DNA from: Planctomycetia bacterium
Lineage (GTDB): Bacteria; Planctomycetota; Planctomycetia; Pirellulales; Thermoguttaceae
Direction of reading: 5' to 3'
Assembly (NCBI GenBank): GCA_030527185.1
Contig: JAUNBF010000001.1
Span: 1-64,000 of the forward strand
DNA: 64,000 nt
The translations under genes and the position numbers were made by a program. The notes beneath the pieces were generated by a model. The model saw only the letters and a list, made by a program, of their open reading frames with translations, made no database searches and was not told where the DNA came from. Below, piece after piece: positions 46,275-64,000 of this stretch. The number at the start of each line of letters is the position of its first letter. Within the stretch, counting starts at the first letter, position 1.

Positions 46275-49200
46275 ATGAAGCATATTGATGAAGCTCTGGC
46301 GGTGATTGGTTCGGCGTGTTATCTTCCTGGAGCAGATTCTGTGGAGTCGTTCTGGAAAAATCTTGAAACGGAGGTTCATGTTCTGGAGACCATTCCCGAA
46401 GAGCGGTTTCGGTCGTCGATTTATCTGGCACCGAAAGCGGGAACGTTGGGGAAAAGCCATGCCCGAATTGCCGGACTGATTGATTTTGAGGCCTTCATGC
46501 GGCAAAAAGTCCCTTCTCTTCTGGAGGAATTGCAAAAAAAAGGTGTCCCCGCGGAATCGGTTTCCCAAGATAAAGGAATGCTTCTATGCCTTTACACAGC
46601 CATGGAAGCTCTGCGGTCGGCAGGCTGGAATCCATGTGATTTGCCCTCGCGAGAAATTTCGACTTATCTGGGGATTGTCAATTGTACCGACGTTTCGCTA
46701 TACGATTTACTTTACGACGCTTTTCCCGCCTGTATCGAACGGTTGGGACAGATTCCCGAACTGCGGGACTCGATTCATCGGGGGGAAAAGGCGGGGATTT
46801 TTCAAGATTATCGGGAGTCTTTGGAATCGAAACGAAGTCGTCATACCGTAGGAAGGGGGGAAGACTACGATTCCAGCCCTCACCGTGTGGCACGCCACAT
46901 CCATCAGGTGTTGGGGTTGCGGGGGATGGTGATGGGATTTGACAATGCCTGTTCATCCTCCTTGGTTTCCCTGTCGCTGGCGCAGCACTATTTTCGGGAA
47001 CACCCGCAAGGATATGCTCTGGTAGGGGGAATCAGCTACTACGTCTATACCGGTTCCATCCATTTTTCCGCCGCACACGCGAATTCTGCCCGTGGTTCCT
47101 TTCCCATGGATGACCGTGCGGAAGGATTGGTGCAGGGGGAAGGTTGTGCCTTTTCCCTGGTGCGTCCTTTGCGGCAGGCGTTGGAGGCGGGAGATACGAT
47201 TTTGGGAATTGTTCGTGGGGTGGGAGTTTCCTCCGATGGAAAAGGAAAAACACTTTGGGCACCCTTGGTGGAAGGGCAGAAACTGGCGATTGAACGTGCT
47301 CTGGAAGCCGCGGAAGTGGAGGACGCGGAGGAAATTGACCTGATTGAGGCGCACGCCACCAGTACGCGGTTGGGAGACGCGACCGAATTGAAATCGTTGT
47401 GTGAAGTCTTGCGGGAGAAGCGGAAAAGTTCGGCTCCGATTCCGATTACCAGCGTCAAAGCGAACATCGGCCATATTCTGGAAGCGGCGGGAATGGCAAG
47501 TTTGATCAAGACTTTGGAAGGACTTCGGCGGGAAGTCCGTCTGCCGCAAACGCATTTTGAACAGCCAAATTCGCAATTTGACTGGGAACATTCGCCTTTT
47601 GTGGTACCTCAGGAAAAAATGCCGTGGAAGATTTCTCCGACGCGGGGACGCCAGGCGATTGTGGAAGCGTTCGGTATTGGAGGTTTGAACGCTTCGGTTT
47701 TGGTGGAAGGGGCGGAATCCGCGTGTAAATTAGGAGAGAAGATTGCCCGGAAAGGAAAAAAACATGCTCCTATTCCTGTGGCGGTGGTGGGAAAGGGATG
47801 CGTTCTTCCGCAGGCATTCGATTGGGAGACGCTGGAAACACTTTGGCGGGAAAATCGTTCGGCACTTTCCGATGTGGCGGCATCACGGGAGGATTGGATG
47901 ATTTCGGCGGAAACGCAAGCCAAAATGCGTCAGGCCGGGTTGAAAAAAATGGGACTGGTGGAAGGGTATACCTACGATTGGAAACGGCACCATATCCCAC
48001 CGAAACAGATTGCTCTGGCCAATCCTCTGCAATTCATGATTCTCGGAGCGGTGGATCAGGCCGCTGCGGAAGTCGGATTTTCCGAATCGTTGCGTGAAAT
48101 GGAAATGTCGAAAAAGAGTGGGAATCGAGAACGGACGGCGGTTGTGGTGGGATGTCGGACAGATTCGGATTTCAACAATGTTTTGGGTGTGGTATTGGCA
48201 CTGCCGGAGATTCTGGAAGGGATTCGCCAGGAGGGACGAAAAAAAGGCTGGACGGAAGAAGAGGTGGAAACCTTGGTGAAAGAACTGGAAAAGGGATTTT
48301 ACCAGACGTACACGGCACTGAAGGATGAGACGGGAGGATTCACGATCAGTACGCTGGCGTCGCGGATTTCCAAAACGTATGATTTGAGAGGAGGGGTTTA
48401 TGCGCTGGATTGTGGGGATGTCTCGTCGCTGGCGGCGTTGTATCAGGGGTATGCGTTGATTCAGTCGGGAGAAGTGGACACCGTTTTTGTGGCGGCGGGA
48501 TACCGTTCTTTGCGGAAGCATGGATTGGACTGGCTACAGAAACAAAACCTTCAGGCACCGGTTCCGGCGGAAGGGGCGATGGCGGTGGTTCTGAAACGTT
48601 ACGACTTGGCGAAAGAGGAGGGAAATCGGATTTGGGGGATACTGGATGGAGTGGAGGGACGGATGGTTCCTGAGGTGGCGGAAGGGACGATAAGTCCGGG
48701 AGAGGTTTTCCAAACCATACGGCGGGAAATGGAGAAACGAAGTGCCTTGCGTTGGAAAGACCCCCGGTTATCTTCCTGGGAACGAACGCTGGAGCCGGAC
48801 GCGGAGGAAGGTTATCAAATGGAACGGCTGTTTGGCAATTTGCGGCCACTGCGGGGAATGGTTCACTGGATGGAACAATTATGTGGCGGAAATTCCGAGA
48901 AGCCGGAGGTGGGTTGGCTCCAGCAGTGGGATGCGGAAGGGATGTTTTACCGGGTGAGTTGGATGAATGAGGCGGCCTGGCAGGTTTGTCGCAAAGAAGA
49001 AAAGGTTGGTTTTCAGAAGGAGGAAAAAAAGTTGCCGCGAACGATGGTTTCAGGAATGTCCCGACAACGGGGAAAAGTGGTTTTTCTGTTTCCAGGGCAG
49101 GGGTCTCAGTATCCGGGAATGTTGGGGGATTGGTTGGACTGGCCTTCGCTGCGGGAATTGGTTCAGGAACTGAACGAAGATTTGGTTTTAGGCGGTTTTC

Positions 49201-52200
49201 CCGACTGCCGAACACTCCTGCAAACGGAAGGCGACCGATTGGGGAAAGACCTGTTCCGAACGCAACTTTCCCTGCTGGTTGCGGATACCTTGCTGGCACG
49301 GTACTTACGGGAAAAGGAAATCGTGCCGGAGATGGTTTTGGGGCATTCCTACGGCGAATATCCTGCCCTGGTGGCGGCGGAAATGGGGACATTTGCCCAG
49401 GCCGCTTACGTGACACAAAGACGCTGTGAGGTTTTGGAGAGTTATTTGCGGAATTTCTCCCCAAATATCCGTACCGGGATGCTTTCCACGGATGCTTCGG
49501 AAGAGAAAATCGCTCGCGTGATTCGGGAAGTGGATTCGCGGGGAGAGGAGGTTTTTATTTCCAATCGAAACAGTTTTCGACAGACGATTCTTTCGGGAGT
49601 TTATCCAAAATTATTGGAAGTGGAGAAAATCCTTCGCGCGGAAAAACAGATGACACAGATACTTCCTGTTCCCGCGGCGTTTCATTCTCCGTTATTGCGG
49701 GGAATGTGCGAGTCCTTTGAAAAAGCGTTGGAAGGAATCCGATTCCAGTGCCCCAGGTATCCTTTTTTGAGTTCGGTGACAGGTCATTTGGAAGCGGACC
49801 CGGAATTGGTTCGTCAGAATCTGATTCTTCAGATGACTCGGCCCGTCGATTTTGTGGCGATGATTCAAAAAGCCTACCGACTGGGTGGACGGCATTTTGT
49901 AGAGGTAGGGCCGAAAAAGGTTTTGACAAACTTGGCTCGTCAGATTTTGGCGGAGTATGCCGATGTGACATTCCACGTCCTGGATTCGGGAAAGGCGGAG
50001 GAAGAAACGATGGAAAAAGTCTGCCGGGAAATTCGCGACGCGGGTAACGCAAGAAAGGAAAAAGAGGAGAAAACGATGAAGCCTCGGGACGAAATCGTTT
50101 TGTCGGGAACCTCTTCGCTGATCATTGGCAAGGTGGGGGGAAGTCCGTATGAAATGGGGTATCAGTATGGTTTGACCAATGCGGAAGAAATTCGGCGAGT
50201 CTTACGACGTTATGCGGATATGGCCTTGTCGTATGCGGAAAAATGGTTGCCTTCCATTCCATCGATGGAACCGGAAATGCTGAAAGTTCGTTTTACGGAA
50301 GAGGGTTGGGAAGAATTGCGGGGAATGGCTCATGGGGCGAAAGTTTCGTTGGAAATGTTGGTGCGTCATCATGGAAATTTGTTGATGGTGGAAGAAAATC
50401 GTCTTCCGGTGATCACACCCTTGACGACAGAAACGACGTTTCCATCCGATGTCCGCCATTCCCCTTCCAGCCAGATGATCAGTGGTTGTGTTCAATTTGC
50501 CGGAAGAACGCCGGAGGGAATTTTTCTGCACGGAGGCAACATTGATGTCCCTTTTAAACGTCTTACCCCGGAAACGTTGTCCTGCCATTTGCTCATACGC
50601 CGACCGACAGGCAAAATTCCCTACGCTTGCCTCGTGCTGTCAGGAATGTTGGGAAGTTTGGGGGGAATCAACGCGTGTGGATTATGTGTTTCCAGCTGTA
50701 CGTTACTCGATTATTCCCGAATGGATGGCGGAAAAGTTCGACCGTTCCATGAGATGATTGTGGTGAGAATATTGAGTGAATGTTCCTGTATCACGGAGGC
50801 TCTGGAACTTTTGAAAGAGATCGGGGGCGTTCATGGTGGTTGGTCAATGCTTCTCTCAGAAACGACCACGGGAAAATTGACGTTGGTGGAGTATTGCCAG
50901 GAAATGATGGAAGTTCGCGAAAATCTCCCCTGGTTGGTGCAGAGTAATCATAGTCAGCTGTTGGTGCGGAAATATCCTCACGGTGGGTTGCCGGTACCGG
51001 AACACTCGCGAACGCGAGGGAATCGATTGCGGGATTTGCTAACACATCAGGGTGAAGCCCAGGGATTGGCCTGGGAACCTCGTCAGATTTTTGCTGCTTT
51101 GCGTGATACCTGTTCTCCCCAGCGAGAAAAGGAAATTCCAGGAATTTGCCGGACGATTGACATGGTTTTGCGGGCGGATAATGTCTGTTCCTGGATGTAC
51201 AATGCTCAGTCGCAAACGTTGATGATGGCGTGTACCGAGGATAATCGTCTTGCGGAGGATGATCAGGCTTTGTGGGAGGAAATCTCGCTACGGAAATTGT
51301 TTCCTGAATTTTTGTCGCTGAAGAAGGAGTGCGTTTCTGAAAAGCAAATTTCGTATCCAGGTTTCTCAAAATCGTGTTCCATCCCGGAAATTGCCAAACT
51401 GGATTACGAAGAGTATGCTCAAAAACGAGAAGCGTATTCGGCAAAGGAAGAAGAGACCGTGCGTTGGGTCGATTGCCTGGTGAGAGGGCCGCAACTGGAG
51501 GAATTGCCATCTCCGCGTGAGGGTGGGGTTTTCGTGATTGGCGACGCGATGAATCCGGTGGCCAAAGAGTTGGAAATGTTGTTGGTTGAGCGAGGAAAGA
51601 AAGTCTTGCGTTTTTCTCCTACATTTTCGGATGGACGTTGCAAGCAATCCCAGGAAGTGGAAGAGGAAATACGGACGTTGTGGGAAAAAGAACCTTTTTA
51701 TCAGGTTTTTCTCCTTCCATCCTGGGATACACTGCCTGTCCAGTCCCAGAGACGCCGGGAATATCTGGTGAATGATCTCCTCCCCACCCTTTACCACGCG
51801 TTACAGGAAATTTATCGGATTTTACTCCAACAGGATGCGTTGAAAAAATTGGTGCTGGTTCTGGGAACCCGAATGGGAGGGGACTTAGGTTGGAGCGGTC
51901 GTACGGAGTTTACCGAAGGAGGGGCACTTCTAGGCTGGATGCGGGGATTGTATGTGGAGAATTGTTCCACGTATGGTATCTATCCTATCACCAAACTGGT
52001 CGACTTTGAGGAAAATACTTCGGCGGCGGAAGTGGCGGAGAAATTGTGGCGGGAATCGGGGTATTGGGAAGCGTGGAATATGGTGGGATATACCGAAGGA
52101 GAACGATTTTATCAGGCCATTTTGCCGCACGAGGTACCTGCGGAAGAAGCCTGCCCGGAGATGTTGGAATCGGGGGCGGTCTGGCTGGTTCCGGGGGGCG

Positions 52201-55200
52201 CTCGCGGAATTACCGCCGAGTTGGCGTTGGCATGGGGACGAAAAACCGGGGCAAAACTCCATCTGATCGGTTCCTCTCCTTTCCCGGAAGTGCCGGAAGC
52301 GTGGCGGGGATTGGATCAGGCAGGTATTTCCCTGTTGCGACAAAAGGTTTTTCGTCAGTCCCTTCAGGACGGGAAAAAATCTGTCGAAGTCTGGAGCCAA
52401 ATCGAAAAAATGCTCGAAATAGACCAGAATTTGCGGCAAATGAGTCAGGAAAAGATCGACTGGGAATACCATTGCTGCGACCTTTGTCAACGGGATGAGG
52501 TTTTGCGGATGCTGGAAACGATTCTGAAAAAGGAGAAACGTATCGACGGGATTCTCTACGGGGCAGGGTATGAGAAATCGAGCCGTTTTATTCGGAAAAA
52601 AAGGGAAGACTGGCACAAAACGGTGATGACCAAAGTGGGTGGTTTGGGGACGTTGCTCGACGCGCTGGAAACACGGCCTCCACGGTGGGTGATCGGCATG
52701 GGATCAATTGCGGGACGTTTAGGTTCAAATGGGCAGAGTGATTATGCCATGGCCAATGTTTGGATGGCAAAAATTCTCAATCGTTTTCAGCGAAAAACAG
52801 GTTGTCGCGTCTGTACGTTCCATTGGAATCCGTGGGATGAGGTGGGAATGGCTCTTCGTCCCGAATCCAAAATCATGTTCCAGCGAATGGGAGTTTCGTT
52901 GATGCCTGTTCAGGAAGGGGTGGAGCATTTTCTTCGGGAGATGGCTCAAGGGCTTCCCTGGCCGGAAGTGATTCCGACGACCTTGCGTTTGGGGAAACTC
53001 TATTATCCTCTGGGATTTTTTCCCTTTGAAAAAAAGGAAGAAACGGAAGTTTTGCCGGAAAATTTTTCGACTTCGGCACGCTATGCCCAGTACAATACTT
53101 CGCAGGAGGAATTGCCACCTCATGGAAAAAGAGAGCAGAAAGCATTTCGCTGTCGAATTTGCTGGTATCCTCAGCCTTCGTTACCCTCTGCGGACTGTCA
53201 CTTGTGGAAAGAGTGGCTTTCGGGAAGTGTGTTGATTGTGGGGGAAAATCCGGTCGCCAGGAGATTGGAAGAACGATTGTGCCAGGCGGGAATTCGGGTG
53301 AACCGTTTTTCGCTCCAGCCACAGACTGAAGAGGAAATAGAGGAGCGTTTGCGGGAAATCTGGGAACAGGAACCAGTCGCTCATCTGTTTTGGGTGGCGG
53401 ATGGAGATGTGGAAAAAGAAGGTTGGTGGAAAGGTCGGGAAAAGGGGGAGGAAAATGTGGCATCGCCCAGGTATTCCCCGGAAATGGTGGGGTTTATTCT
53501 GATTCGGAATTTGGCTCGGCGGTTGGGAGAAACGTCGCGGCAGAAGCATTTTTCGATAACGGCGGGAACTTTTCTGGGAGGTGTGAGGGAACATCTCTGC
53601 CCGGAAGACTGGCGGGGAGGATGGATTTCCGGAATGATGAAAGGGCTTCGAGATGAGTGGCATGTCAAGTCACAACTCTATTTACCTTTTTGTATTGTGG
53701 ATCACTCTCTCCAAACACCGACAGAAACCGTGGTGGAACATCTGTTGGGAGAAGCGCAACCCAATATCCTGGCGGTCAGGAAAGGGTGGCATTTACAAAA
53801 ACATCTTCTGGAAGGGAGTACGGAAGGTTGGCAGGGATGGGAATCGTGGAATCCTTTCGATGAGGAGGTGGGATATTCCGAAACGGAGCGTTTTGTACGA
53901 CGAACAGAACCTCAACCTGTAGAAGAAGTGGCGGAAAAACCTCTGGCGGATACGGAAGGAGTCTGGGTATTGGTTGGTGGAACCGGAGGTGTGGTGGGAA
54001 CGATGGGTGTCGCATTGGCAAAAATGCTGAAACCACGAAAAATTTATCTGGTGGGGTTCACGCCTTGGGAATCGGTGGAAGCCCGTTTTTTGGAAATGTC
54101 GGAAAAGGAGTTGGCGCAATTCCGATTGCAGAAAACGCGAGAGTGCCTGCGTTATCAAAAGAGTCCCATGGCATTTTGGAAGAAATTTTGCAAGGCTCTT
54201 TACAAGAATAAACAGATCGAGGCTTTTCGTAAAACGGGTATCGAAGTGGAGTATGCCGTTTGCGATATGCGAAGTCCGCGGGCTGTTCGCGATTGGACGC
54301 GAGAATTGGAAGAAAAAGGAGAGCGTGTTACCGGACTTTTTTACGGTGCCGGATGGAACGGTGTGGATGGAGAATTGCGGACAAAGCCCTTGGCGACGGT
54401 GGAAAACGTGATGACGACGAAGGTGACAGGATTGGCAACCCTGATGGAGACGTTGGAAAACCATCCCTTGAAATTTGTGATTGCTCTGGGATCGGTCAGT
54501 GGACGTTTTGGAGGGAATGGTCAGGTCGATTATACCGCGGCCAATGATACGTTGTCGAAAATCATCCGTTATTGGCGGGGAAAACGACCGGATTGCGCGA
54601 TGAGTTGCCTGGAGTGGGGACCGTGGGATGAAGTGGGAATGGCGGCCAGTATCGATGTCAAAGGGGCGCTCCTGGCAGCCAAAATGGTCTTCCTGTCGCC
54701 TGAAGAGGGAATGGAGCATTTTCTGGAAGAATTTCGACGTGGTTTGCCGGAAGTGGAGGTTTTGTTTTGTCCCTGGAAATATTACAAACGTTTTCAGCCC
54801 GACATTCTCTCCATTCCACGGGAAAAAGAGGCCATTCCATCTTGTAAGGAAACCCCGATTTCCGAAATGCGGATTTTGGGTGAAAATGCCGACGCGCGAG
54901 CATTGCGACAAAAAATGGAAGGAAAATCGGGAAAGGGATTTTTACCTGTGGTGATGTTGGGACGGGATGAGGATTGGACACGTCCCATGCGAGAAAGCCA
55001 ACGTCGGTTTCGGCGTGAGAAAATCCACCGATGGACGTTGGATCAGCTTCGATTTTGGAAAAAGGAGGGGATTCGGAAACTCTTTTTGCCTGCGGGAGAA
55101 ACGCCGGAAAAGGATTTTTGGCAAGATTGGGTTCAGGAGGCGAAAAAAATCATTCCTGAAATAAAAACGGAGGTTTTTTCCTGGAAAGATTCCCCGGAAA

Positions 55201-56174
55201 AAGTTGCGGAGGCGATTCTGCGTTCCGCTCAGGAGGATAACGACGACGAAATCTCCCGTCCGAATAGCGCGGAGTCCCATACCCCTGTTTTGTTGGAACC
55301 GGGTTGGAAATGGGAGGGGGAAAAGCTGGTGACTCAATGTTGTTTGAACCCTCAAAAAGAGGTCTTTTTACAGGATCATCAGTTGCATCAGCGTCCGTTT
55401 CTGCCAGTGGTTATGGGGATGGAAATTTTTGCGGAAACCGCTCGTATCGCATCCCGACAGTGGAATTTGGGAATGTATCGGGGATGTCAGCGCTGGAAGA
55501 TTTTTTCCGGGATGACATTTTACGCTCACCAACCGCACACCCTCACTTGTACGCTGGAAAAAAGGGGGGAAACGGTGCATGGAATGTTGGCTGGGGAGGT
55601 GTATCAGCCCAATGGGACATTGCGGAATGCGAGTCGGCCTTTTTATCGGTGTGAATTGTTGTGGGATTCCGCGCCGGAGCTTCCCCATGTGCGGATTCAG
55701 GAACCTTGGAAACAGTCCTGGACGTTGGAGTACCCCGCCATGGGAGAACGGGCGATTTATCATGGTCCCTCTTTGCAATGGCTCAAACGGTGCCATTTTT
55801 CCGACGCAACGCAACTTGTCGGGGAAATTCGGGTGGGAGAACCTTCTCAAATCGTGGCGAATCGGTTGGGAAGTTCGACCGAAAAGGGACTGGAATGGTG
55901 GCCATCGTTGATCGATGCGACGTTGTATGCCTGCGGTGTTTTGAATGCGATCGCTTTTCCAGGAACGATTCTTTTGCCGGATCAGATGGAGCAGGTACGT
56001 TGGTATCCTGTTTCGATCGTGCCGGGAGAGATCTGCCAGGTTCATATCCGACGGCAGGGTGTGAAAGAGTGGCCGGGAGGATACCGGCAAGGCATTTTCA
56101 ATTTGACACTTTACAACACGACAGGAGAAGCGATCTTCCAGATTCAGGAATATCGAGCGACAATTCTGGCATGA
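46275..56174 (+). CDS. PfaA/HglE-like iterative lipid-polyketide synthase: KS-CLF-AT-C45-KR-KR-DH
   Basis: 3299 residues from the ATG at 46275 (AAGGAGAG upstream). Order: KS (5-480) with Cys226, His360, His400 intact. A second KS-like domain (500-880) reads DCGDVSSL where the active Cys should be (Asp715), so it is a chain-length factor. AT (930-1230) has GHSYG, Ser1025 and His1137. A C45-family Ntn-hydrolase/acyltransferase (1270-1680) has GGSPYEMGYQYG, nucleophile Cys1405 in SGCVQFAG and GGNIDV. Two KRs (1965-2210, GGARGIT, Tyr2157; 2562-2842, GGTGGVVG, Tyr2753) keep Ser/Tyr/Asn. A C-terminal hot-dog DH (2990-3299) has His3035 and Asp3214. No ACP is present, so the ACPs at 61308 must act in trans. 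It builds and reduces a long acyl chain. The C45 insertion between AT and KR is exceptional. Confidence 0.88.
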   Translation: MKHIDEALAVIGSACYLPGADSVESFWKNLETEVHVLETIPEERFRSSIYLAPKAGTLGKSHARIAGLIDFEAFMRQKVPSLLEELQKKGVPAESVSQDKGMLLCLYTAMEALRSAGWNPCDLPSREISTYLGIVNCTDVSLYDLLYDAFPACIERLGQIPELRDSIHRGEKAGIFQDYRESLESKRSRHTVGRGEDYDSSPHRVARHIHQVLGLRGMVMGFDNACSSSLVSLSLAQHYFREHPQGYALVGGISYYVYTGSIHFSAAHANSARGSFPMDDRAEGLVQGEGCAFSLVRPLRQALEAGDTILGIVRGVGVSSDGKGKTLWAPLVEGQKLAIERALEAAEVEDAEEIDLIEAHATSTRLGDATELKSLCEVLREKRKSSAPIPITSVKANIGHILEAAGMASLIKTLEGLRREVRLPQTHFEQPNSQFDWEHSPFVVPQEKMPWKISPTRGRQAIVEAFGIGGLNASVLVEGAESACKLGEKIARKGKKHAPIPVAVVGKGCVLPQAFDWETLETLWRENRSALSDVAASREDWMISAETQAKMRQAGLKKMGLVEGYTYDWKRHHIPPKQIALANPLQFMILGAVDQAAAEVGFSESLREMEMSKKSGNRERTAVVVGCRTDSDFNNVLGVVLALPEILEGIRQEGRKKGWTEEEVETLVKELEKGFYQTYTALKDETGGFTISTLASRISKTYDLRGGVYALDCGDVSSLAALYQGYALIQSGEVDTVFVAAGYRSLRKHGLDWLQKQNLQAPVPAEGAMAVVLKRYDLAKEEGNRIWGILDGVEGRMVPEVAEGTISPGEVFQTIRREMEKRSALRWKDPRLSSWERTLEPDAEEGYQMERLFGNLRPLRGMVHWMEQLCGGNSEKPEVGWLQQWDAEGMFYRVSWMNEAAWQVCRKEEKVGFQKEEKKLPRTMVSGMSRQRGKVVFLFPGQGSQYPGMLGDWLDWPSLRELVQELNEDLVLGGFPDCRTLLQTEGDRLGKDLFRTQLSLLVADTLLARYLREKEIVPEMVLGHSYGEYPALVAAEMGTFAQAAYVTQRRCEVLESYLRNFSPNIRTGMLSTDASEEKIARVIREVDSRGEEVFISNRNSFRQTILSGVYPKLLEVEKILRAEKQMTQILPVPAAFHSPLLRGMCESFEKALEGIRFQCPRYPFLSSVTGHLEADPELVRQNLILQMTRPVDFVAMIQKAYRLGGRHFVEVGPKKVLTNLARQILAEYADVTFHVLDSGKAEEETMEKVCREIRDAGNARKEKEEKTMKPRDEIVLSGTSSLIIGKVGGSPYEMGYQYGLTNAEEIRRVLRRYADMALSYAEKWLPSIPSMEPEMLKVRFTEEGWEELRGMAHGAKVSLEMLVRHHGNLLMVEENRLPVITPLTTETTFPSDVRHSPSSQMISGCVQFAGRTPEGIFLHGGNIDVPFKRLTPETLSCHLLIRRPTGKIPYACLVLSGMLGSLGGINACGLCVSSCTLLDYSRMDGGKVRPFHEMIVVRILSECSCITEALELLKEIGGVHGGWSMLLSETTTGKLTLVEYCQEMMEVRENLPWLVQSNHSQLLVRKYPHGGLPVPEHSRTRGNRLRDLLTHQGEAQGLAWEPRQIFAALRDTCSPQREKEIPGICRTIDMVLRADNVCSWMYNAQSQTLMMACTEDNRLAEDDQALWEEISLRKLFPEFLSLKKECVSEKQISYPGFSKSCSIPEIAKLDYEEYAQKREAYSAKEEETVRWVDCLVRGPQLEELPSPREGGVFVIGDAMNPVAKELEMLLVERGKKVLRFSPTFSDGRCKQSQEVEEEIRTLWEKEPFYQVFLLPSWDTLPVQSQRRREYLVNDLLPTLYHALQEIYRILLQQDALKKLVLVLGTRMGGDLGWSGRTEFTEGGALLGWMRGLYVENCSTYGIYPITKLVDFEENTSAAEVAEKLWRESGYWEAWNMVGYTEGERFYQAILPHEVPAEEACPEMLESGAVWLVPGGARGITAELALAWGRKTGAKLHLIGSSPFPEVPEAWRGLDQAGISLLRQKVFRQSLQDGKKSVEVWSQIEKMLEIDQNLRQMSQEKIDWEYHCCDLCQRDEVLRMLETILKKEKRIDGILYGAGYEKSSRFIRKKREDWHKTVMTKVGGLGTLLDALETRPPRWVIGMGSIAGRLGSNGQSDYAMANVWMAKILNRFQRKTGCRVCTFHWNPWDEVGMALRPESKIMFQRMGVSLMPVQEGVEHFLREMAQGLPWPEVIPTTLRLGKLYYPLGFFPFEKKEETEVLPENFSTSARYAQYNTSQEELPPHGKREQKAFRCRICWYPQPSLPSADCHLWKEWLSGSVLIVGENPVARRLEERLCQAGIRVNRFSLQPQTEEEIEERLREIWEQEPVAHLFWVADGDVEKEGWWKGREKGEENVASPRYSPEMVGFILIRNLARRLGETSRQKHFSITAGTFLGGVREHLCPEDWRGGWISGMMKGLRDEWHVKSQLYLPFCIVDHSLQTPTETVVEHLLGEAQPNILAVRKGWHLQKHLLEGSTEGWQGWESWNPFDEEVGYSETERFVRRTEPQPVEEVAEKPLADTEGVWVLVGGTGGVVGTMGVALAKMLKPRKIYLVGFTPWESVEARFLEMSEKELAQFRLQKTRECLRYQKSPMAFWKKFCKALYKNKQIEAFRKTGIEVEYAVCDMRSPRAVRDWTRELEEKGERVTGLFYGAGWNGVDGELRTKPLATVENVMTTKVTGLATLMETLENHPLKFVIALGSVSGRFGGNGQVDYTAANDTLSKIIRYWRGKRPDCAMSCLEWGPWDEVGMAASIDVKGALLAAKMVFLSPEEGMEHFLEEFRRGLPEVEVLFCPWKYYKRFQPDILSIPREKEAIPSCKETPISEMRILGENADARALRQKMEGKSGKGFLPVVMLGRDEDWTRPMRESQRRFRREKIHRWTLDQLRFWKKEGIRKLFLPAGETPEKDFWQDWVQEAKKIIPEIKTEVFSWKDSPEKVAEAILRSAQEDNDDEISRPNSAESHTPVLLEPGWKWEGEKLVTQCCLNPQKEVFLQDHQLHQRPFLPVVMGMEIFAETARIASRQWNLGMYRGCQRWKIFSGMTFYAHQPHTLTCTLEKRGETVHGMLAGEVYQPNGTLRNASRPFYRCELLWDSAPELPHVRIQEPWKQSWTLEYPAMGERAIYHGPSLQWLKRCHFSDATQLVGEIRVGEPSQIVANRLGSSTEKGLEWWPSLIDATLYACGVLNAIAFPGTILLPDQMEQVRWYPVSIVPGEICQVHIRRQGVKEWPGGYRQGIFNLTLYNTTGEAIFQIQEYRATILA

Positions 56175-56218: not shown

Positions 56219-56977
56219 ATGTGCTTAAAAGGTCGAGTGGCTTTGGTGACAGGGGGGTCGCGTGGGATTGGACGGGCAACGGCGTTGCGGCTGGCTCAGG
56301 AAGGGGCGGATGTGGTGGTCAACTACGTGACATCCCGACAACAGGCCGATTCCATTGCGAAAGAAATTGCCGCTCTGGGACGTCAGGTCTGGGTGGTCAA
56401 AGGGGATGTTCGGCAGACGGAAGATATGGAGTCGATGATCGACTACATTACCCATGAAATTGGGCAGTTGGATATTCTCATTTCCAACGCGGCCACAGGA
56501 GGATTTCGATCCATGTTGAAGGTTTCCCTCCAACATTTTCGAGCGGCCCTGGAAACGAATGTCTATCCGATGATTCTGTTGGTGCAAAAAGCACTGCCAC
56601 TTTTGCAACGTTCCGCATGGCGGGGCAAAGTGGTGGGAATTTCCAGCCAGGGCGCCCATCGAGCACTTCCGTGGTATGGGCTGGTGGGAGCTTCCAAGGC
56701 GGCCCTGGAAGCGACGGTAAGGCATCTGGCTCTGGAATTTGGAGAGAAGGTTAATTTTAATATCGTTCGAGCCGGATTGGTGGATACCGATTCGGGGCGG
56801 ATGTTGCCCCACGCGGACATCCTGTTTCAGGAAGCACCGCACCATGCCTGTGTGGGGAATCGATTATTGACGCCCGCGGATGTGGCCAATGCGATTGTAT
56901 TTCTGGTGGGACCGGAAAGTGACATGATTCAGGGAAGTGTTCTGACGGTGGATGGAGGAGCCGATATTCATCCGTAA
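56219..56977 (+). CDS. FabL-like enoyl-ACP reductase (SDR family)
   Basis: 252 residues of the short-chain dehydrogenase fold. Cofactor loop TGGSRGIG at residues 11-18 and ISNAATGG. The active site reads WYGLVGASKAALE: Tyr153 and Lys160 are seven apart (Y-x6-K), as in enoyl-ACP reductases FabI/FabL, rather than the Y-x3-K of FabG. Together with a VDTDSG segment and the DGGADI end, the closest fit is FabL (enoyl reductase III). It lies 44 bases after the synthase gene and would supply the enoyl reduction that the synthase lacks. A 3-oxoacyl reductase role is the alternative. Confidence 0.72.
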   Translation: MCLKGRVALVTGGSRGIGRATALRLAQEGADVVVNYVTSRQQADSIAKEIAALGRQVWVVKGDVRQTEDMESMIDYITHEIGQLDILISNAATGGFRSMLKVSLQHFRAALETNVYPMILLVQKALPLLQRSAWRGKVVGISSQGAHRALPWYGLVGASKAALEATVRHLALEFGEKVNFNIVRAGLVDTDSGRMLPHADILFQEAPHHACVGNRLLTPADVANAIVFLVGPESDMIQGSVLTVDGGADIHP

Positions 56978-57014
56978 CATTTCTGAATGGTGGTACCGGG
57001 AAGGAAGGCGTTTT

Positions 57015-58481
57015 ATGAAATATCTCGCGTTGACGGGAGCGACAGGATTGTTGGGTTCCTATTTGTTAAAAGAACTGCTGCAACGGGATATTCCTGTTCT
57101 GGCACTGGTGCGTGCCAGTCGCAGAGAATCTCCCCGCCAGCGTATGGAAGGGATTTTACGTCGTTTTGAAAATCGGTTGGGACGCCCTTTGCCACGACCG
57201 GTGGTGATGGAAATGGATTTGCACAAACCCTTTTCGGGACTGGAAGAATCCCAACGTCAATGGATTCGGCAACATGTCGATACGGTTTTGCACAATGCCG
57301 CCAGTCTCGTCTTTCGCAGGGATGAGCAAAACGAGCCATACCGCTCCAATGTGGAGGGAACGAGGCATGTACTCGACTGGTGTCGGGAGGCGGGAATTCG
57401 ACGTTTTTTTTATGTTTCCACCGCTTACGTTTGTGGACTGCGAGAGGGAAAAATTGCGGAAACGGAACTGGATGAGGGGCAGACGTGGGGAAATGACTAC
57501 GAAAAGAGTAAAGTGGAGGCGGAAAAACTGGTTCGACAGGCATCGTTTGAGGAGGGTTTGACCGTTTTTCGTCCGGCGATTATTGTGGGAGACCGTTGGG
57601 ATGGTTATACACCGACGTTTCATGGTTTTTACACTCCCCTGAAAATTTTGCTCCCCTTTCTCGAACCGGGAAAAATCGATTTGCTGCAAGGGCGGATGTT
57701 AGCCTCTCTGTTGGGATTCAACCCGGAGGATGGAAAGAACTTTGTTCCGGTGGATTGGGTGGCGAAAGTGATGGTGCAGGTACTCCAGAATCGTGCCTGG
57801 CACGGTAAAACCTATCATTTGACCGCGGCGGAACGAGTTTCGATTGCGGAAATGTGCCAGGTTTTTTATGAAGGAATCCAGCGATTTTCACGGCCCTCAA
57901 CCCAAACCGGGAAAACGCTGCGTACCGATTGGGAGACGCTCTGGCGAATCTTTGTGCAACAGATGGACGTGTACCGTACCTATTGGCGAAACGATCCGGA
58001 ATTTGACATGACGCATACCCTTTCGATTGCGCGAACCTTTCCGCCTCCCCGGATGACGCGCGAAATTCTCCTGCGGCTGGTGCGGTACGCGATTCGCTCC
58101 GGGTGTGGATGGCCACTTCCGCCACCTGTTTCCATGGAGCGGGAAATGGAGACTTTTTGGAAGAAAAACGCGGAAGTGGAGTGGAAAGGTTGGGAACGAG
58201 GCGAAGAAGAATCTCCCGAACCATTTTCGTTTGGTCTGCGGATTTCCGGCAAAGGGGGGGGAGATTGGACTTTTTCCACCCGTCGCTGTGGCAAGATTTT
58301 CGTCCGGTGGGGATTGCCCGTGGAAGATTCGCCTCTGCTGACGATGAATTCTGCCCTTTTTCACCGTCTGAAAACGTTGCCGCGGGACTATCTTTTTTGG
58401 AATACCAGTTGGGAAAGGGATTGTGAGCATCGTAAAAATCAGGCTTTGGCTGTTTTGAGAAACATCGTTGAGGAAAAATGA
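57015..58481 (+). CDS. Thioester-reductase-like / fatty acyl reductase protein
   Basis: 488 residues from the ATG at 57015 (AAGGAAGG upstream). It belongs to the extended SDR group of thioester reductases and fatty-acyl reductases (NAD_binding_4): TGATGLLGSYLLKELL at the start (Gly8-Gly14), HNAASLVFRRDE, FFYVSTAYVCG, and catalytic NDYEKSK with Tyr162 and Lys166, then FRPAIIVGD. The C-terminal ~200 residues are less conserved and may bind the acyl-ACP. It has no ACP of its own, unlike HglB/HetM of heterocyst glycolipid clusters, where such a domain releases the fatty chain as aldehyde or alcohol. The next KS gene overlaps its stop, so it is part of the operon. Confidence 0.8.
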   Translation: MKYLALTGATGLLGSYLLKELLQRDIPVLALVRASRRESPRQRMEGILRRFENRLGRPLPRPVVMEMDLHKPFSGLEESQRQWIRQHVDTVLHNAASLVFRRDEQNEPYRSNVEGTRHVLDWCREAGIRRFFYVSTAYVCGLREGKIAETELDEGQTWGNDYEKSKVEAEKLVRQASFEEGLTVFRPAIIVGDRWDGYTPTFHGFYTPLKILLPFLEPGKIDLLQGRMLASLLGFNPEDGKNFVPVDWVAKVMVQVLQNRAWHGKTYHLTAAERVSIAEMCQVFYEGIQRFSRPSTQTGKTLRTDWETLWRIFVQQMDVYRTYWRNDPEFDMTHTLSIARTFPPPRMTREILLRLVRYAIRSGCGWPLPPPVSMEREMETFWKKNAEVEWKGWERGEEESPEPFSFGLRISGKGGGDWTFSTRRCGKIFVRWGLPVEDSPLLTMNSALFHRLKTLPRDYLFWNTSWERDCEHRKNQALAVLRNIVEEK

Positions 58482-61258
58482 AAGAACCGATTGCAATTGT
58501 AGGAATGGCCTGCCGGCTGCCGGGAGCGGAAAATGTGGAGGCGTTCTGGGAAATGCTGCTGCGTGGAAAGTCCGCCTTGGGAAAAGTGCCACCGGAACGT
58601 CTGGACCGGGAACTGTTTTACGATCCCCAGGTGGGAGTACGGAATAAAACCTATACCGATTTGGCAGGATGTATGGAGTATCCTTCCGTGGAGGAAATTC
58701 GGGAATGGCTCCCTCCGAACGCGGAAAAGGAGTACGATAAAGTCCCTCTTTGCGTGGCGGGAACCGTACTCCAGGCATGTTGGGATGCCGGTTGGAATCC
58801 CAGAGCTTTTCCCATTCGGAATACCGGAGTCTATATGGGAACCACCCGTAGCGGCGAAAAGTCTCAGGAGTTGGGAATCCAACTGGCGATGCCGCAGTTG
58901 ATGAAGGAATTCCACGCGATGCCGGAGGTTGAACGACTTCTGGATGAGCCACAGAGGAAAGAGATAACCAGAGCGGTCTCCGAAAGAATGAAAAATGGGA
59001 GAACGCAACGGGAGGAGGGGTTTTATCCATTCTATTTAAGCTCCGATTTAACGCGGTTGATTGTTCAGATGTTGGGATTGGATGGCCCGCAGATGGTGTT
59101 TAATTCCGCGTGTGCGTCGTCGCTCCATTCCGTGGCACAGGCCATGATGGCGCTGCAAACAGGGAGTATCGATGCCGCGATTGCGGGTGGTGCGAGTTAT
59201 TTCCATTCCGATACCCTCGTTTTGTTTGCCTCTTCCCGTTCCATGTCGTCACGGCGTTCGTGTCCCTTTGATGAGGAGGCGGACGGCTTGATTGTGGGGG
59301 AGGGAAATGTCATTTTTCTGCTTCGACGTTTGGAAGATGCACTGCGGAACGGAGAGGATGTCAAGGCCGTTTTAACGGGTGTGGGAATGGCTTCCGATGG
59401 CAAAGGGAAAAGTCTGTGGGCACCTCGAAAAGAAGGGCAGGCTGAAGCGATTTGTCGAGCCTGGGAAGGGTTGAATCGTGCGGAAGTCGATGCGATAGAG
59501 GGACATGCGACGTCGACCGCATTGGGAGATGCAACGGAATTGGAAACGGTACAGGAGGTCTTTGGCGAGGCTTTGCGGGGACGTAAAATTCCCATTGGAT
59601 CGACGAAAGGGAACATTGGTCATACGCTGGAATGTGCTGGCGCGGCGGGGATTCTCAAGGCTGTTCTGACATTGCGTCATGAAATCATTCCACCGGTGGC
59701 GGGTCTAAAAAAGAAGAATTCCCGCGTGGCGTGGGATACTCACCCCTGTGAAGTCCTGACCGAAGCCAGAGCGTGGCCACGATTCCCGGATCGTCCCCGG
59801 CGAATTGGCGTGAATTCCTTTGGCATCGGCGGTCTGAATGCGCACCTGGTGGTTGAGGAATTTCGACCGGAGTTTTGGCGGAAAAAAAGAACCGTCCAAG
59901 AGAAACCTTCGACTTTGGAAAAAACGATTGCGGTCGTTGGATGTGGCTGTATCTATCCTCATGCCCATTCTCTGGCTGCTTTTCGGGAATGGCTGAAACA
60001 GGAAGGGAGTGGTTTTATGCCCATTCCCGAAAGATATTTCGATTTGGCCGCCATTCTCTCGGAAACGGCACAAAAAACCGGGTATCCTCCGACTCAACCG
60101 TGGGGGGCGATCATGGATGGTTATGTTTATGACTGGCGGAAAAACAAGGTTCCTCCGAAACAGGTGGAAAATGCCAGTCCGATTCAGTTCATGATGTTGG
60201 ATGCCGTAAATGAGGCGTTGGAACAGTCGCGATACACCTTCACCCCCGAACAACGCCGTCGGACAGGAGTCGTGGTGGGGACGGGATTTGGGGGACTGTT
60301 TGCCGACCAGATGAATCTGATTCTATGGATTCCCGTATTGGAAAAGTATCTTCGGGAAGAGTTGCGGAAAAAAGGTGTTTCTACGGAGATGGCTGAGAAA
60401 ATCCTGCGTCGTTATGCCGATACACTCCACCGAAAAATGCCAGCGTTACTGGATGAAACAGGCTCTTTCACTCCCAGTGCCCTGGCGTCGCGGATTACCA
60501 AAACGTTGGATTTGCATGGTGGGGCGGTTGCGGTGGATGCGGGAAGTGCCTCTTTCGGAGCCGCGTTGGAATGTGCCATGGATCAGCTTCTCACCGGGAT
60601 GAACGACACGATGATTTGCGTTTGTGGACAGCAGGATTTCAGCCCTCTGGGAATCGAGTATCAGATGATTTGCGGAGAATGGTCGCAAAACCCCGAAATC
60701 TCTCCCTTTGATAATCAATCCAATGGCTTTCTTCCGGGAGAAGGATGTGGCGTGGTCGTTTTGCGGCGCTACGATGTGGCTCGGGAACAGGAAAATCCAA
60801 TTCAGGCCGTTTTAACCGGTTGGGGGATGGGGAGTGGAGGTTCTCCCCTGGAAAATCTGCAAAGTGCCATGGCTCGTTCTTTGGGAAAAGAGCCGGATTT
60901 TCCGAAATTTGTGCAGGCTCCTTTCCATGGTGTGGCTTCGCGGGACGCGATTTTGGCAGAAGGGGTGGCACGTGTGGGAAAAAAGTATCGCAACGAAAAA
61001 ATAACGCTGGGAACGGTTTCTCACCGAATCGGGTATCAACGTTTTACCTCCGGGATGCCGGAAATGTTGGCGGCTATTCTTCAATTGCAGGAAGAAACGT
61101 GGAATCGGTCGTCATTCCTGCAAAATCCGGCAGTTTATTTTCAACGTTGGGAAAACCTTTCCCTGCCGTTGGAGGAACTTTCGATGAAAAAAACGGATCG
61201 TGTGATGGTTTGCGGAGGAGAAACGTCCTGCTATGCCGTCCAACTAAAAAGAAAGTAA
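58478..61258 (+). CDS. Ketosynthase / chain-length factor protein (PfaC-like KS-CLF)
   Basis: 926 residues; the ATG overlaps the previous stop. The first half is a complete KS: NSACASSL with Cys212, EGHATSTALGD with His343, and KGNIGH with His382. The second half is a KS-like domain with VDAGSASFGAAL, Ser690 replacing the active Cys, so it is a chain-length factor. This KS-CLF pair is typical of PfaC and HglD/HglC-type proteins. It is paralogous to residues 1-880 of the big synthase; both share a VPPKQ...QFM segment in the CLF. It has no DH or ACP. The likely role is a second condensing unit, for example for a different chain-length range. Confidence 0.88.
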   Translation: MKEPIAIVGMACRLPGAENVEAFWEMLLRGKSALGKVPPERLDRELFYDPQVGVRNKTYTDLAGCMEYPSVEEIREWLPPNAEKEYDKVPLCVAGTVLQACWDAGWNPRAFPIRNTGVYMGTTRSGEKSQELGIQLAMPQLMKEFHAMPEVERLLDEPQRKEITRAVSERMKNGRTQREEGFYPFYLSSDLTRLIVQMLGLDGPQMVFNSACASSLHSVAQAMMALQTGSIDAAIAGGASYFHSDTLVLFASSRSMSSRRSCPFDEEADGLIVGEGNVIFLLRRLEDALRNGEDVKAVLTGVGMASDGKGKSLWAPRKEGQAEAICRAWEGLNRAEVDAIEGHATSTALGDATELETVQEVFGEALRGRKIPIGSTKGNIGHTLECAGAAGILKAVLTLRHEIIPPVAGLKKKNSRVAWDTHPCEVLTEARAWPRFPDRPRRIGVNSFGIGGLNAHLVVEEFRPEFWRKKRTVQEKPSTLEKTIAVVGCGCIYPHAHSLAAFREWLKQEGSGFMPIPERYFDLAAILSETAQKTGYPPTQPWGAIMDGYVYDWRKNKVPPKQVENASPIQFMMLDAVNEALEQSRYTFTPEQRRRTGVVVGTGFGGLFADQMNLILWIPVLEKYLREELRKKGVSTEMAEKILRRYADTLHRKMPALLDETGSFTPSALASRITKTLDLHGGAVAVDAGSASFGAALECAMDQLLTGMNDTMICVCGQQDFSPLGIEYQMICGEWSQNPEISPFDNQSNGFLPGEGCGVVVLRRYDVAREQENPIQAVLTGWGMGSGGSPLENLQSAMARSLGKEPDFPKFVQAPFHGVASRDAILAEGVARVGKKYRNEKITLGTVSHRIGYQRFTSGMPEMLAAILQLQEETWNRSSFLQNPAVYFQRWENLSLPLEELSMKKTDRVMVCGGETSCYAVQLKRK

Positions 61259-61307
61259 CGAAAAAATGGCAAATGTACTTTTAACCAATCAATATAAGGA
61301 GCATTTC

Positions 61308-62480
61308 ATGAAAGCCGATAGAGGTTCCATTTTTCATTTTGACGCAACGGAAGTCCGACGAGGGATGATGAAAAGACGTGCCACTTCCCAGCAACCCTGG
61401 GAAGGAGCTTTTTCTCCAAAGAAAACGCGGGGAAAAGAAAAACTGCCATCGACGGAACGAGTGATACCAAACGCTCCCGTTACCGAGTCGCTCTCGAAGG
61501 AAAATTTTCCCACACGTGAAGAAATGAAGGTGTATATTACCCATTTCGTGATGGAACAAACGGGGTATCCCGAAGAGATGATTACGCTCGATGCCGATTT
61601 GGAAGGGGATTTGGGAATCGACAGTATCAAAAAAGCACAATTGATGGGAGAATTGAACGAAATGTTCTGTTTTGCCGATTGGACTTCCGGCGAGGATGCG
61701 GATTTGACGTTGGAGGATTTTCCCACGTTGGGACATATCCTAGACTACATGGAGAAGAAAAAAGGAAAAACGGAAACGAACCTTTCCGTAGCTTCCCAAA
61801 CCCCTCTCTTCTCCGAGAAGAATGAGGAATCGGGAATTTCAGAACCGTTGGAGAAAACAGGAGATAGAGACTTCTCCACGCCCGAGGAATGGAAAGCCTA
61901 CATCGTCCATTTTGTGATGGAGCAAACCGGGTATCCCGAAGAGATGATTACGCTCGATGCTGATTTGGAAGGGGATTTGGGAATCGACAGTATCAAAAAA
62001 GCACAATTGATGGGGGAATTGAACGAAATGTTCTGTTTTGTCGACTTGGCTTCGGATGAGGATACGGATTTGACGTTGGAGGATTTCCCTACGCTGGGGC
62101 ATATCCTCAACTACATGGCGAAAAAAAGGGTGCCCAAAACCATTTCCGAGACCGAGATGGCGATTTCTGCCGGGGGCGATTCCTGTAAGGCATCTCCAGA
62201 CATGGCCTCTCCAACCCTCCCAACTCGTGAGGAATTGCGGGCGTACATTGTCAACTTTGTGATGGAGCAAACCGGGTATCCTGAAGAAATGGTGACGCTC
62301 GATGCCGATTTGGAAGGGGATTTGGGAATCGACAGTATCAAAAAAGCACAATTGATGGGAGAATTGAACGAAATGTTCTGTTTTGTCGACTTGGCTTCGG
62401 GCGAGGATGCCGATTTGACGTTGGAGGATTTTCCCACGTTGGGGCATATCCTGGATTATATGCTGCGGAAAAAAAAGTGA
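61308..62480 (+). CDS. Triple acyl carrier protein
   Basis: 390 residues from the ATG at 61308, which has AAGGAG 6 bases upstream (an ATG at 61266 lacks one). Three ACP domains carry the 4'-phosphopantetheine site GDLGIDSIKKAQLMG with Ser106, Ser228 and Ser343, the motif of Pfa-type ACPs. They are joined by Ser/Glu-rich linkers. The three domains are almost identical over about 120 bases at DNA level (around 61550-61670, 61912-62035, 62257-62380), which suggests recent duplication or gene conversion. It is the only carrier in the operon, so it must serve both KS-CLF proteins, the KRs, DH and the reductase in trans. Multiple ACPs raise product yield in PUFA synthases. Confidence 0.92.
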   Translation: MKADRGSIFHFDATEVRRGMMKRRATSQQPWEGAFSPKKTRGKEKLPSTERVIPNAPVTESLSKENFPTREEMKVYITHFVMEQTGYPEEMITLDADLEGDLGIDSIKKAQLMGELNEMFCFADWTSGEDADLTLEDFPTLGHILDYMEKKKGKTETNLSVASQTPLFSEKNEESGISEPLEKTGDRDFSTPEEWKAYIVHFVMEQTGYPEEMITLDADLEGDLGIDSIKKAQLMGELNEMFCFVDLASDEDTDLTLEDFPTLGHILNYMAKKRVPKTISETEMAISAGGDSCKASPDMASPTLPTREELRAYIVNFVMEQTGYPEEMVTLDADLEGDLGIDSIKKAQLMGELNEMFCFVDLASGEDADLTLEDFPTLGHILDYMLRKKK

Positions 62481-62518: not shown

Positions 62519-63211
62519 TCAGCCCTCTCTGGCAAGAATCAGAAAAAACGAGGATTTTTGCCGAATTTCCAAAGAAAATGCTCGACCGGAATGATGGATT
62601 GCGCTCCATTGGCAAGCGGAAAGACGAATCTGCCAGTGAAGTGGGTGAAAGGCTTCGGAATGCCGGAGCGAATAAGCTTTGTAGGCCGCTTCTTTACCTC
62701 CCCAAAAAATTTCCGCAGGAATTTTCGAGGTGTGGAGAGAGAGAAGTTTTCTTTCCTCCGAATGTAGGAAGAGACGTTGCATGGTTTGGGAGAAACTTTC
62801 TGGGGAACAAAGATCGCAACCTACGGGAAAATCTTCCTGAAAAGAGACGGCAGCCAGATGTCCGGCGGTGTGGGAGAGGGAAAAGTGGGTAGGATGAGGC
62901 TGGTTTTCCACAAAAATACGAGGCGGAATTCCCTGGTTGCGGGAATTGCGAGTACGGACTGTCCATGCGGAAAATCTTTTCCTGACAGTCGGCAAAATCT
63001 TTTGACCAAAATCTTCCCACGAACAAGGAGCAGGGGAGTCTTCCTCAATCATTCGTTTGAGGAGGATTCTTCCGCAAATCCACTCCAACCGTCGCGCAGG
63101 ATGCCGGAGGGTCGATAAAAAGGCCTTTTCTTCTGTCGATAAGAGTCCGTATCCCTCCTTTTCCGCGTTTTTCCAAAGGGGGACGAGCCAAACTCGATCA
63201 TGGGGTGTCAT
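62519..63211 (-). CDS. 4'-phosphopantetheinyl transferase (Sfp-type)
   Basis: 230 residues from the ATG at 63211; an ATG at 63259 adds 16 residues. The Sfp-type motifs are present: the RLEWICGRILLKRM segment, FSLSHTAGHLAAV, VGCDLCSPE (metal-binding Asp; the usual second acidic residue is here Cys) and FWGGKEAAYKA with the Lys/Glu pair. It would load phosphopantetheine onto the three ACPs. It overlaps the next minus-strand gene by 14 bases and converges with the ACP gene, 38 bases apart. Confidence 0.85.
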   Translation of the reverse strand: MTPHDRVWLVPLWKNAEKEGYGLLSTEEKAFLSTLRHPARRLEWICGRILLKRMIEEDSPAPCSWEDFGQKILPTVRKRFSAWTVRTRNSRNQGIPPRIFVENQPHPTHFSLSHTAGHLAAVSFQEDFPVGCDLCSPESFSQTMQRLFLHSEERKLLSLHTSKIPAEIFWGGKEAAYKAYSLRHSEAFHPLHWQIRLSACQWSAIHHSGRAFSLEIRQKSSFFLILAREG

Positions 63212-64000
63212 TTTTTGCTTTCCGGGAAAATTGGATCGTTTTTTGGATTTCCTTTTCATAGCATTCTCGAAAAAGAGAGATTTCCAACGGCGAAAATTTC
63301 TGACGATCGACGCAGAGTGAAAAAATCAACTCTTTTTCCACGGTCAAAATTCCTACCGTGACAGGTGTCTGGGGACGCACGGGAGGAGCCCCCACAAAAG
63401 TCACCAATTCCAGCCCTCCTCCGAAAAGGTTTCCTTTTTTCTGAAAATGTTCTTCCCTTGCCAGTCGAACACACCGGCCCAGATTCGACAAAACCGTACT
63501 GCAATGGCAAAAACGTGGCGAACATAAATATCGCGTCAACTGTGGAAGTCGGCCAAAAAAACGTAAACCTTCCAGAAACATCGCGCCACTGGACCACTCC
63601 ATGGCAAATTGAATGTGCGACTGGATTTTTTTCAGCAAAAATGGCTCGCGGGAAATTTTGCCACGTGGCAAGTCGAGAAAAATATAGCCCAGAACGTTCG
63701 CCATCGGAAGATTTTGATGATGTTCGTTGCGTAAATTGCACGGAATGAGAACCCGATGCCATTTCCCCCGTGGTCGGTAGTCGGGATAGGCGGAACAGCG
63801 ATTTTCCCATTGTTGCAGTGCCAGAAATAAATCACGTAAAAAGAGGGTGTTCACACTGATATGTTGTTCTTTGGCTGCCTGAGCATAGGCTGGAAACCAT
63901 TCCCCGGAACTTTTCCACCAGATTTGAGCGGGCGGAAGTTTTTCCGATAACGAATTTTCTCGCGGAAAAAGAGAACCGATAGGAATAGGACGTCGGAAGA
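63198..64000 (-). CDS. Condensation-type acyltransferase, 5' end outside the window
   Basis: At least 267 codons are open on the minus strand from beyond the window end to the TGA at 63198-63200. Residues such as LPPAQIWWKSSGEWF, KEQHISVNTLFLRDLFLAL, VLIPCNLRNEHH, ANVLGYIFLDLP and CSTVLSNLGR match the second half of condensation-domain (PapA/WS-DGAT-like) acyltransferases: a Rossmann-like lobe with the P-NLR segment and the later SNLG. The catalytic HHxxxDG motif would lie upstream and is not seen. Next to a PPTase and a thioester reductase, it may esterify the released chain. The exact donor and acceptor are unknown. Confidence 0.65.
   Translation of the reverse strand, partial: FRRPIPIGSLFPRENSLSEKLPPAQIWWKSSGEWFPAYAQAAKEQHISVNTLFLRDLFLALQQWENRCSAYPDYRPRGKWHRVLIPCNLRNEHHQNLPMANVLGYIFLDLPRGKISREPFLLKKIQSHIQFAMEWSSGAMFLEGLRFFGRLPQLTRYLCSPRFCHCSTVLSNLGRCVRLAREEHFQKKGNLFGGGLELVTFVGAPPVRPQTPVTVGILTVEKELIFSLCVDRQKFSPLEISLFRECYEKEIQKTIQFSRKAKNDTP

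What the first reader, a model, noticed from the sequence alone, without database searches (positions are those of the whole stretch)
46275..56174. C45 Ntn-acyltransferase domain built into a PfaA-like synthase between AT and KR
The synthase has the order KS-CLF-AT-C45-KR-KR-DH. The block at about 50091-51310 has clear C45 (isopenicillin N acyltransferase-like) features: GGSPYEMGYQYG, RGMAHGAKVSLEML, and the nucleophile Cys1405 followed by GGNIDV. In PfaA the same place holds the tandem ACPs. An autoprocessing amidase/acyltransferase in line with a chain-building enzyme could transfer the acyl chain to an amine (an N-acyl lipid or lipoamino acid), or cut the polypeptide at Cys1405 during maturation, splitting it into two halves. 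I know of no described synthase with this order.
Basis: partly seen in the sequence, partly recalled or inferred. Interest (0 to 1): 0.88.

Follow-up and report, generated by a model that had tools for sequence, protein, structure and literature searches.

The report
Self-cleaving acyltransferase inside planctomycete lipid synthase
Many planctomycete bacteria, including the laboratory strain Planctopirus limnophila, carry a giant lipid-building enzyme with a penicillin-acyltransferase-type domain built into its middle; that domain probably cuts the protein in two and acts on the growing chain, and I found no description of this arrangement.

Summary
The 3,299-aa protein (46275-56174, +) is KS-CLF-AT-C45-KR-KR-DH. 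The C45 block passes NCBIfam NF040521 (107 bits, cut-off 85) and Pfam PF03417. A confident AlphaFold model (pLDDT 86) best matches isopenicillin N acyltransferase, then acid ceramidase and NAAA. Nucleophile Cys1405, Asp1424 and Asn1558 are all present.

It is not an isolated fusion. One search found C45 inside long ORFs in about 50 of 397 Pirellulales genomes; Planctomycetales have it too, including P. limnophila DSM 3776. I compared 47 synthases. C45 does not replace the ACPs: in P. limnophila and many others the order is KS-CLF-AT-ACPn-C45-KR-DH, whereas here the three ACPs sit in the operon's last gene.

25 of 47 copies keep the Cys, and all 25 keep Asp and Asn; 22 lost it, in about four events. 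Stand-alone C45s branch inside the synthase clade three times, and in two of those lineages the synthase's own copy has lost its Cys. This favours a catalytic role on the acyl chain over mere self-cutting.

Self-cleavage before Cys1405, giving chains of about 157 and 217 kDa, is predicted but not shown. Substrate and product are unknown.

The parts
46275..56174 (+). Synthase KS-CLF-AT-C45-KR-KR-DH, 3,299 aa (alternative ATG at 46233)
   Evidence: Shine-Dalgarno before 46275
46284..47747 (+). KS domain with active-site Cys (NACSSS)
   Evidence: PF00109/PF02801; motif
47769..48812 (+). CLF: second KS-like domain without the KS cysteine
   Evidence: Second PF00109 stretch, matched in relatives
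49068..49997 (+). AT domain (GHSYGEY ... AFHS)
   Evidence: PF00698, motifs
50130..51260 (+). In-line C45 Ntn domain; disordered loop just before Cys1405
   Evidence: NF040521 107.3 bits; PF03417; AF2 pLDDT 86.4, pTM 0.89; Foldseek best hit 2x1c/2x1d
50487..50489 (+). Predicted nucleophile Cys1405 (TGT); predicted autocleavage Gly1404|Cys1405
   Evidence: conserved Gly-Cys in the C45 alignments
50532..50549 (+). GGNIDV motif with catalytic Asp1424
50943..50954 (+). SNHS motif, oxyanion Asn1558
51453..53012 (+). First KR region (SDYAMAN intact)
   Evidence: PF08659, motif
53193..54842 (+). Second KR region (VDYTAAN intact)
   Evidence: PF08659 second stretch, motif
55293..56168 (+). DH, double hot-dog
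   Evidence: PF14765/PF21089 weak; DHQLHQRPFLP and LIDAT motifs
56219..56977 (+). SDR; nearest NCBIfam model is enoyl-ACP reductase FabL (below cut-off), so KR or ER in trans
56952..58481 (+). Thioester reductase (male-sterility type)
   Evidence: PF07993 151 bits; TIGR01746 126 bits, below cut-off 213
58478..61258 (+). Second KS-CLF protein
   Evidence: PF00109 272.8 bits
61266..62480 (+). Three-ACP protein (LGIDSIKKAQ x3); matches the PfaA ACP region (TIGR02813 positions 1311-1590)
62519..63259 (-). Probable phosphopantetheinyl transferase (weak)
   Evidence: PF01648 E 9e-4, below cut-off
63198..64000 (-). Condensation-type O/N-acyltransferase (runs past the window end, to 64613)
   Evidence: PF00668 38.2 bits; recurs beside these synthases

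Best explanation
The synthase is an iterative PUFA-synthase-like enzyme of class Planctomycetia with an in-line, catalytically competent cysteine Ntn (C45) domain. Proposed mechanism: (1) the precursor folds and the peptide bond Gly1404-Cys1405 breaks by the N-to-S acyl shift normal for this family, leaving chains of about 157 kDa (KS-CLF-AT-C45alpha) and 217 kDa (C45beta-KR-KR-DH) held together by the shared Ntn fold. (2) The freed N-terminal Cys1405 attacks an acyl group carried by the ACPs, which are in cis in relatives and on 61266-62480 here. (3) The acyl-enzyme is resolved by an amine (N-acyl product) or by water (amide or thioester hydrolysis). The parallel thioester reductase and condensation-type transferase suggest that the final product is a long-chain lipid with a reduced or esterified end. 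Shown: architecture, predicted fold, intact catalytic residues, conservation, evolution. Inferred: self-cleavage, chemistry, substrate, product.
For: C45 profiles above their curated cut-offs. AF2 model pLDDT 86.4, best PDB matches IAT (E 1e-17, TM up to 0.75), acid ceramidase and NAAA, with a disordered loop ending at the Cys. In 47 synthases, all 25 with Cys also keep the Asn-x-Asp and Asn-His motifs; of 22 without Cys only 3 keep the Asp. Synthase-linked C45s form one clade, 100/99 support, apart from ordinary stand-alone C45s. Stand-alone copies arose three times inside that clade. In G548 and in genus g9 (G353, G345) the stand-alone copy keeps Cys/Asp/Asn while the synthase-borne copy lost the Cys; the G548 copy still carries a decayed ACP-like stretch. 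Precedent: AzsT, a C45 enzyme of azaserine biosynthesis, hydrolyses an amide on a carrier-protein-bound substrate (PMC10445470).
Against: No biochemical data. 22 of 47 synthases lost the Cys yet keep the chain-building domains, so C45 catalysis is dispensable for elongation. Several intact-Cys clusters also hold a thioester reductase, so C45 need not be the release step. Nothing identifies the amine or the chain. The stand-alone/in-line swap rests on two lineages, and the link between ACP placement and Cys state disappears once phylogeny is allowed for.
Confidence: 0.6

Rival explanations
1. The domain serves only maturation: it cuts the synthase into two subunits and has no substrate of its own.
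For: The Gly-Cys site and disordered pre-Cys loop fit autocleavage.
Against: Stand-alone intact copies derived from the in-line clade keep every catalytic residue with no synthase to cut. 22 copies lost the Cys without the gene being split there.
Confidence: 0.12
2. The domain is a structural linker, like the Cys-less copies, and its chemistry is vestigial.
For: 22 of 47 copies lack the Cys (9 or more have Ser there). One that was modelled keeps a confident Ntn fold (pLDDT 89.8; best match 2x1c), and Cys-less copies evolve under purifying selection (dN/dS 0.16-0.22).
Against: In the window and 24 others all catalytic residues are kept together. The Cys-less copies evolve about 4-5 times faster than the AT of the same protein, as expected after loss of function.
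Confidence: 0.15
3. It is an editing thioesterase that clears stalled acyl-ACP by hydrolysis.
For: Position directly after the ACPs in relatives; dispensable in some lineages; Cys-Ntn enzymes form thioester acyl-enzymes (general knowledge).
Against: Characterised C45/C89 relatives act on amides or move acyl groups to amines; no thioesterase precedent was found here.
Confidence: 0.13

Closest known systems
Isopenicillin N acyltransferase (IAT, MEROPS C45; PDB 2x1c/2x1d)
   Same: Ntn fold, Gly-Cys cleavage context, Cys/Asp/Asn, N-terminal PYEMG-type motif
   Different: Stand-alone fungal enzyme of about 357 aa; here the domain is embedded in a 3,299-aa synthase with 1,404 residues in front of the nucleophile
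PfaA of PUFA synthases (TIGR02813)
   Same: KS-AT-(ACPs)-KR-DH plan; PfaA-type ACPs, which lie in trans here
   Different: 412 bits against a cut-off of 1,010; adds CLF and C45, often a second KR; no ACPs in this protein
Type J cluster of Planctomyces limnophilus (Shulse & Allen 2011, PMC3098273)
   Same: Pfa-like synthase reported from the same species
   Different: Described as ER + KS-MAT-ACP3-KR; the C45 synthase found here is KS-CLF-AT-ACP4-C45-KR-DH with PPTase, SDR and GH3 next to it. No C45 is mentioned in the passages read.
AzsT, C45 enzyme of azaserine biosynthesis (PMC10445470)
   Same: C45 enzyme working on a carrier-protein-bound substrate
   Different: Separate protein in an NRPS-type pathway; removes a succinyl group by hydrolysis
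Heterocyst glycolipid (Hgl) synthases
   Same: Iterative KS-AT-ACP-KR synthase with thioester reductase and SDR partners (from general knowledge)
   Different: No C45 domain known to me; not compared by profile here

Membership tests
C45 / acyl-CoA:6-APA acyltransferase family | Curated profile score (NF040521, PF03417) | tested here: met
   107.3 vs 85; 29.3 vs 23.2
C45 / acyl-CoA:6-APA acyltransferase family | Ntn alpha-beta-beta-alpha fold | tested here: met
   Predicted model; Foldseek 2x1c E 1e-17, TM up to 0.75
C45 / acyl-CoA:6-APA acyltransferase family | Nucleophile Cys plus Asp and Asn | tested here: met
   Cys1405, Asp1424, Asn1558
C45 / acyl-CoA:6-APA acyltransferase family | Autoproteolysis before the Cys | not testable with these tools
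   Needs protein
PfaA (TIGR02813) | Curated profile score | tested here: not met
   412.2 vs 1010.1
PfaA (TIGR02813) | Tandem ACPs in the same chain after AT | tested here: not met
   None in the window protein; three on 61266-62480; present in relatives
PfaA (TIGR02813) | KS, AT, KR and DH domains in that order | tested here: met
HglE-type heterocyst glycolipid synthase | HglE KS profile or phylogeny | not tested
   No HglE model was run on it

The most novel reading that the evidence does not exclude
A self-splitting megasynthase: an iterative lipid synthase that is cleaved inside an embedded Ntn acyltransferase, keeps both halves together through that fold, and uses the new N-terminal cysteine to join its own ACP-bound product to an amine, making a new class of planctomycete N-acyl lipids.
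Probability: 0.25. Interest if true: 0.92.

Novelty: new variant of a known kind. Interest (0 to 1): 0.74.

Why it matters
No PUFA-synthase-like or polyketide megasynthase with an in-line Ntn domain turned up in the literature searchable here. If active, it would be the first known to me to be cut within its own chain by a built-in nucleophile and to carry N-acyl chemistry as a domain. It occurs in several families of Planctomycetia, a class whose lipids and natural products are poorly charted, and in P. limnophila, for which genetic tools exist, so the question can be tested directly. The mix of intact and Cys-less copies also gives natural controls.

Tried and rejected
Assembly artefact or frame error: rejected, since the same fusion is open in dozens of genomes. 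'C45 replaced the ACPs': rejected, since ACPs precede C45 in P. limnophila, G048, G049, G051 and many others. 'ACPs in trans go with intact Cys': raw counts suggest it (Fisher p 3e-5) but independent pairs on the tree give no support, so dropped. 'Aminotransferase clusters go with Cys loss' (0/25 vs 11/22) is likewise mostly one clade. A seventh row of alignment A2 (L118:1-2) was a bad reference and that alignment was not used. Papers: no description of the architecture in searches; subscription papers and preprints are not held, so absence is not proof.

Full report
WHAT IS THERE. The ORF 46275-56174 encodes 3,299 aa (ATG with AAGGAG upstream). Pfam gives KS, a second KS-like domain, AT, AAT (PF03417), two KR stretches and a partial DH. 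The C45 block scores 107.3 bits against NF040521 (cut-off 85). Motifs are complete: KS NACSSS 224, AT GHSYGE 1023, C45 GGSPYEMG 1288, Gly1404-Cys1405, GGNIDV 1420-1425, SNHS 1557-1560, KR Tyr motifs at 2155 and 2751, DH motifs at 3034 and 3212. The operon continues with an SDR, a thioester reductase, a KS-CLF protein and a three-ACP protein; a weak PPTase and a condensation-type transferase lie convergent to it. The ACP protein matches the ACP part of the PfaA model.

FOLD. An AlphaFold2 model of window:50100-51302 on 50 sequences has pLDDT 86.4 and pTM 0.89. A stretch of about 25 residues of low confidence ends just before Cys (model residue 130), where the first strand starts. Foldseek's best PDB matches are IAT precursor and mature (E 1e-17), then acid ceramidase and NAAA.

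HOST AND DISTRIBUTION. The named relatives are Planctomycetota; G027 corresponds to Thermoguttaceae bacterium RGIG7588, from water-buffalo omasum. With an alignment of six domains, 102 of 397 Pirellulales genomes match at E <= 1e-10, and by my count about 50 of them carry the match in an ORF of 1,000 aa or more. In the wider phylum sample, the fusions to synthases that I identified occur only in class Planctomycetia, including five genomes of another order. One of these has contigs of 5,423,075 and 37,010 bases, the sizes I know for P. limnophila DSM 3776; its synthase is KS-CLF-AT-ACP4-C45-KR-DH with an intact Cys, followed by PPTase, SDR and a GH3 enzyme.

EVOLUTION. I compared 47 synthases. 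Twenty-five keep the Cys and all of these keep Asn-x-Asp and Asn-His. Twenty-two lost it, and of those 3 keep the Asp. Nine or more have Ser at that place; since the Asp is mostly gone I read them as inactive, but a Ser nucleophile is not excluded. On an AT tree the Cys state changes about four times, with one Cys-less clade of 17 (support 99/95). A Cys-less domain still models as an Ntn fold (best match 2x1c), and such domains evolve with dN/dS 0.16-0.22, against 0.03-0.06 for AT in the same proteins. The synthase-associated C45s form a single clade (100/99). Inside it, stand-alone C45 genes appear three times: G220, G548 and genus g9. In G548 the in-line copy has Gly for Cys while the stand-alone protein has PGCSQF...VNEDS...TNHS and a decayed ACP-like N-terminus. 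In g9 a KS-CLF protein ends in a Cys-less C45, and a separate intact C45 gene exists. This looks like catalysis moving from cis to trans, and is the best available argument that the reaction, not the cut, is selected.

MECHANISM. Cysteine Ntn enzymes use the free alpha-amino group of the nucleophile, so an active domain implies cleavage at Gly1404-Cys1405 (established for IAT, NAAA and acid ceramidase; inferred here). The predicted chains are 157 and 217 kDa. Position after the ACPs in relatives, and the precedent of AzsT acting on carrier-bound substrate (PMC10445470), point to an ACP-bound substrate. Whether the acyl group goes to an amine or to water is open. Because thioester reductases occur in many intact-Cys clusters, C45 may not be the release step.

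LITERATURE. Shulse and Allen 2011 list a different Pfa-like cluster from P. limnophilus (Type J). A recent planctomycete paper mentions hglE-KS-like clusters by antiSMASH only. The 2026 survey of PUFA-synthase hybrids does not mention C45 or planctomycetes. I found no description of this architecture.

LIMITS. Most genomes are metagenome bins without names. Domain limits are from local BLAST against the window's own domains. The Fisher p-values ignore shared ancestry. Catalytic roles of Asp and Asn are by homology from general knowledge of the family.

Noticed in passing
L159:243-20000, L178:957-20000, L033+L034 (G051) and similar: The Cys-less synthases of several genera sit in a conserved cluster: MBL - synthase - PPTase - Rieske oxygenase - SDR - thioester reductase - class III aminotransferase - AMP ligase - condensation-type transferase, which looks like a pathway to a long-chain amine derivative.
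   Followed up: partly
L205:1753-4287 (-): Another C45 fusion elsewhere in the phylum: PlsC-type acyltransferase (PF01553) + C45 (PF03417, 77 bits) + TPR in one 845-aa ORF; several genomes of that family have C45 in ORFs of about 850-970 aa.
   Followed up: partly
L196:13834-15513: A GH3-type acyl-amino-acid ligase (PF03321) lies directly after the C45 synthase, PPTase and SDR in P. limnophila; it could supply the amide chemistry.
   Followed up: no
L200:8327-9820 (-): 497-aa protein with a degenerate ACP-like N-terminus (IDG in place of IDS) and an intact C45, apparently a cut-out piece of a synthase.
   Followed up: partly
L206:3303-6443: 1,046-aa ORF with a C45-like stretch (PF03417 28 bits) and no other Pfam domain.
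   Followed up: no
window 39586-41736 and 38580-39551: PEP-CTERM protein and DUF1559 pseudopilin-like protein upstream, typical of planctomycetes.
   Followed up: no
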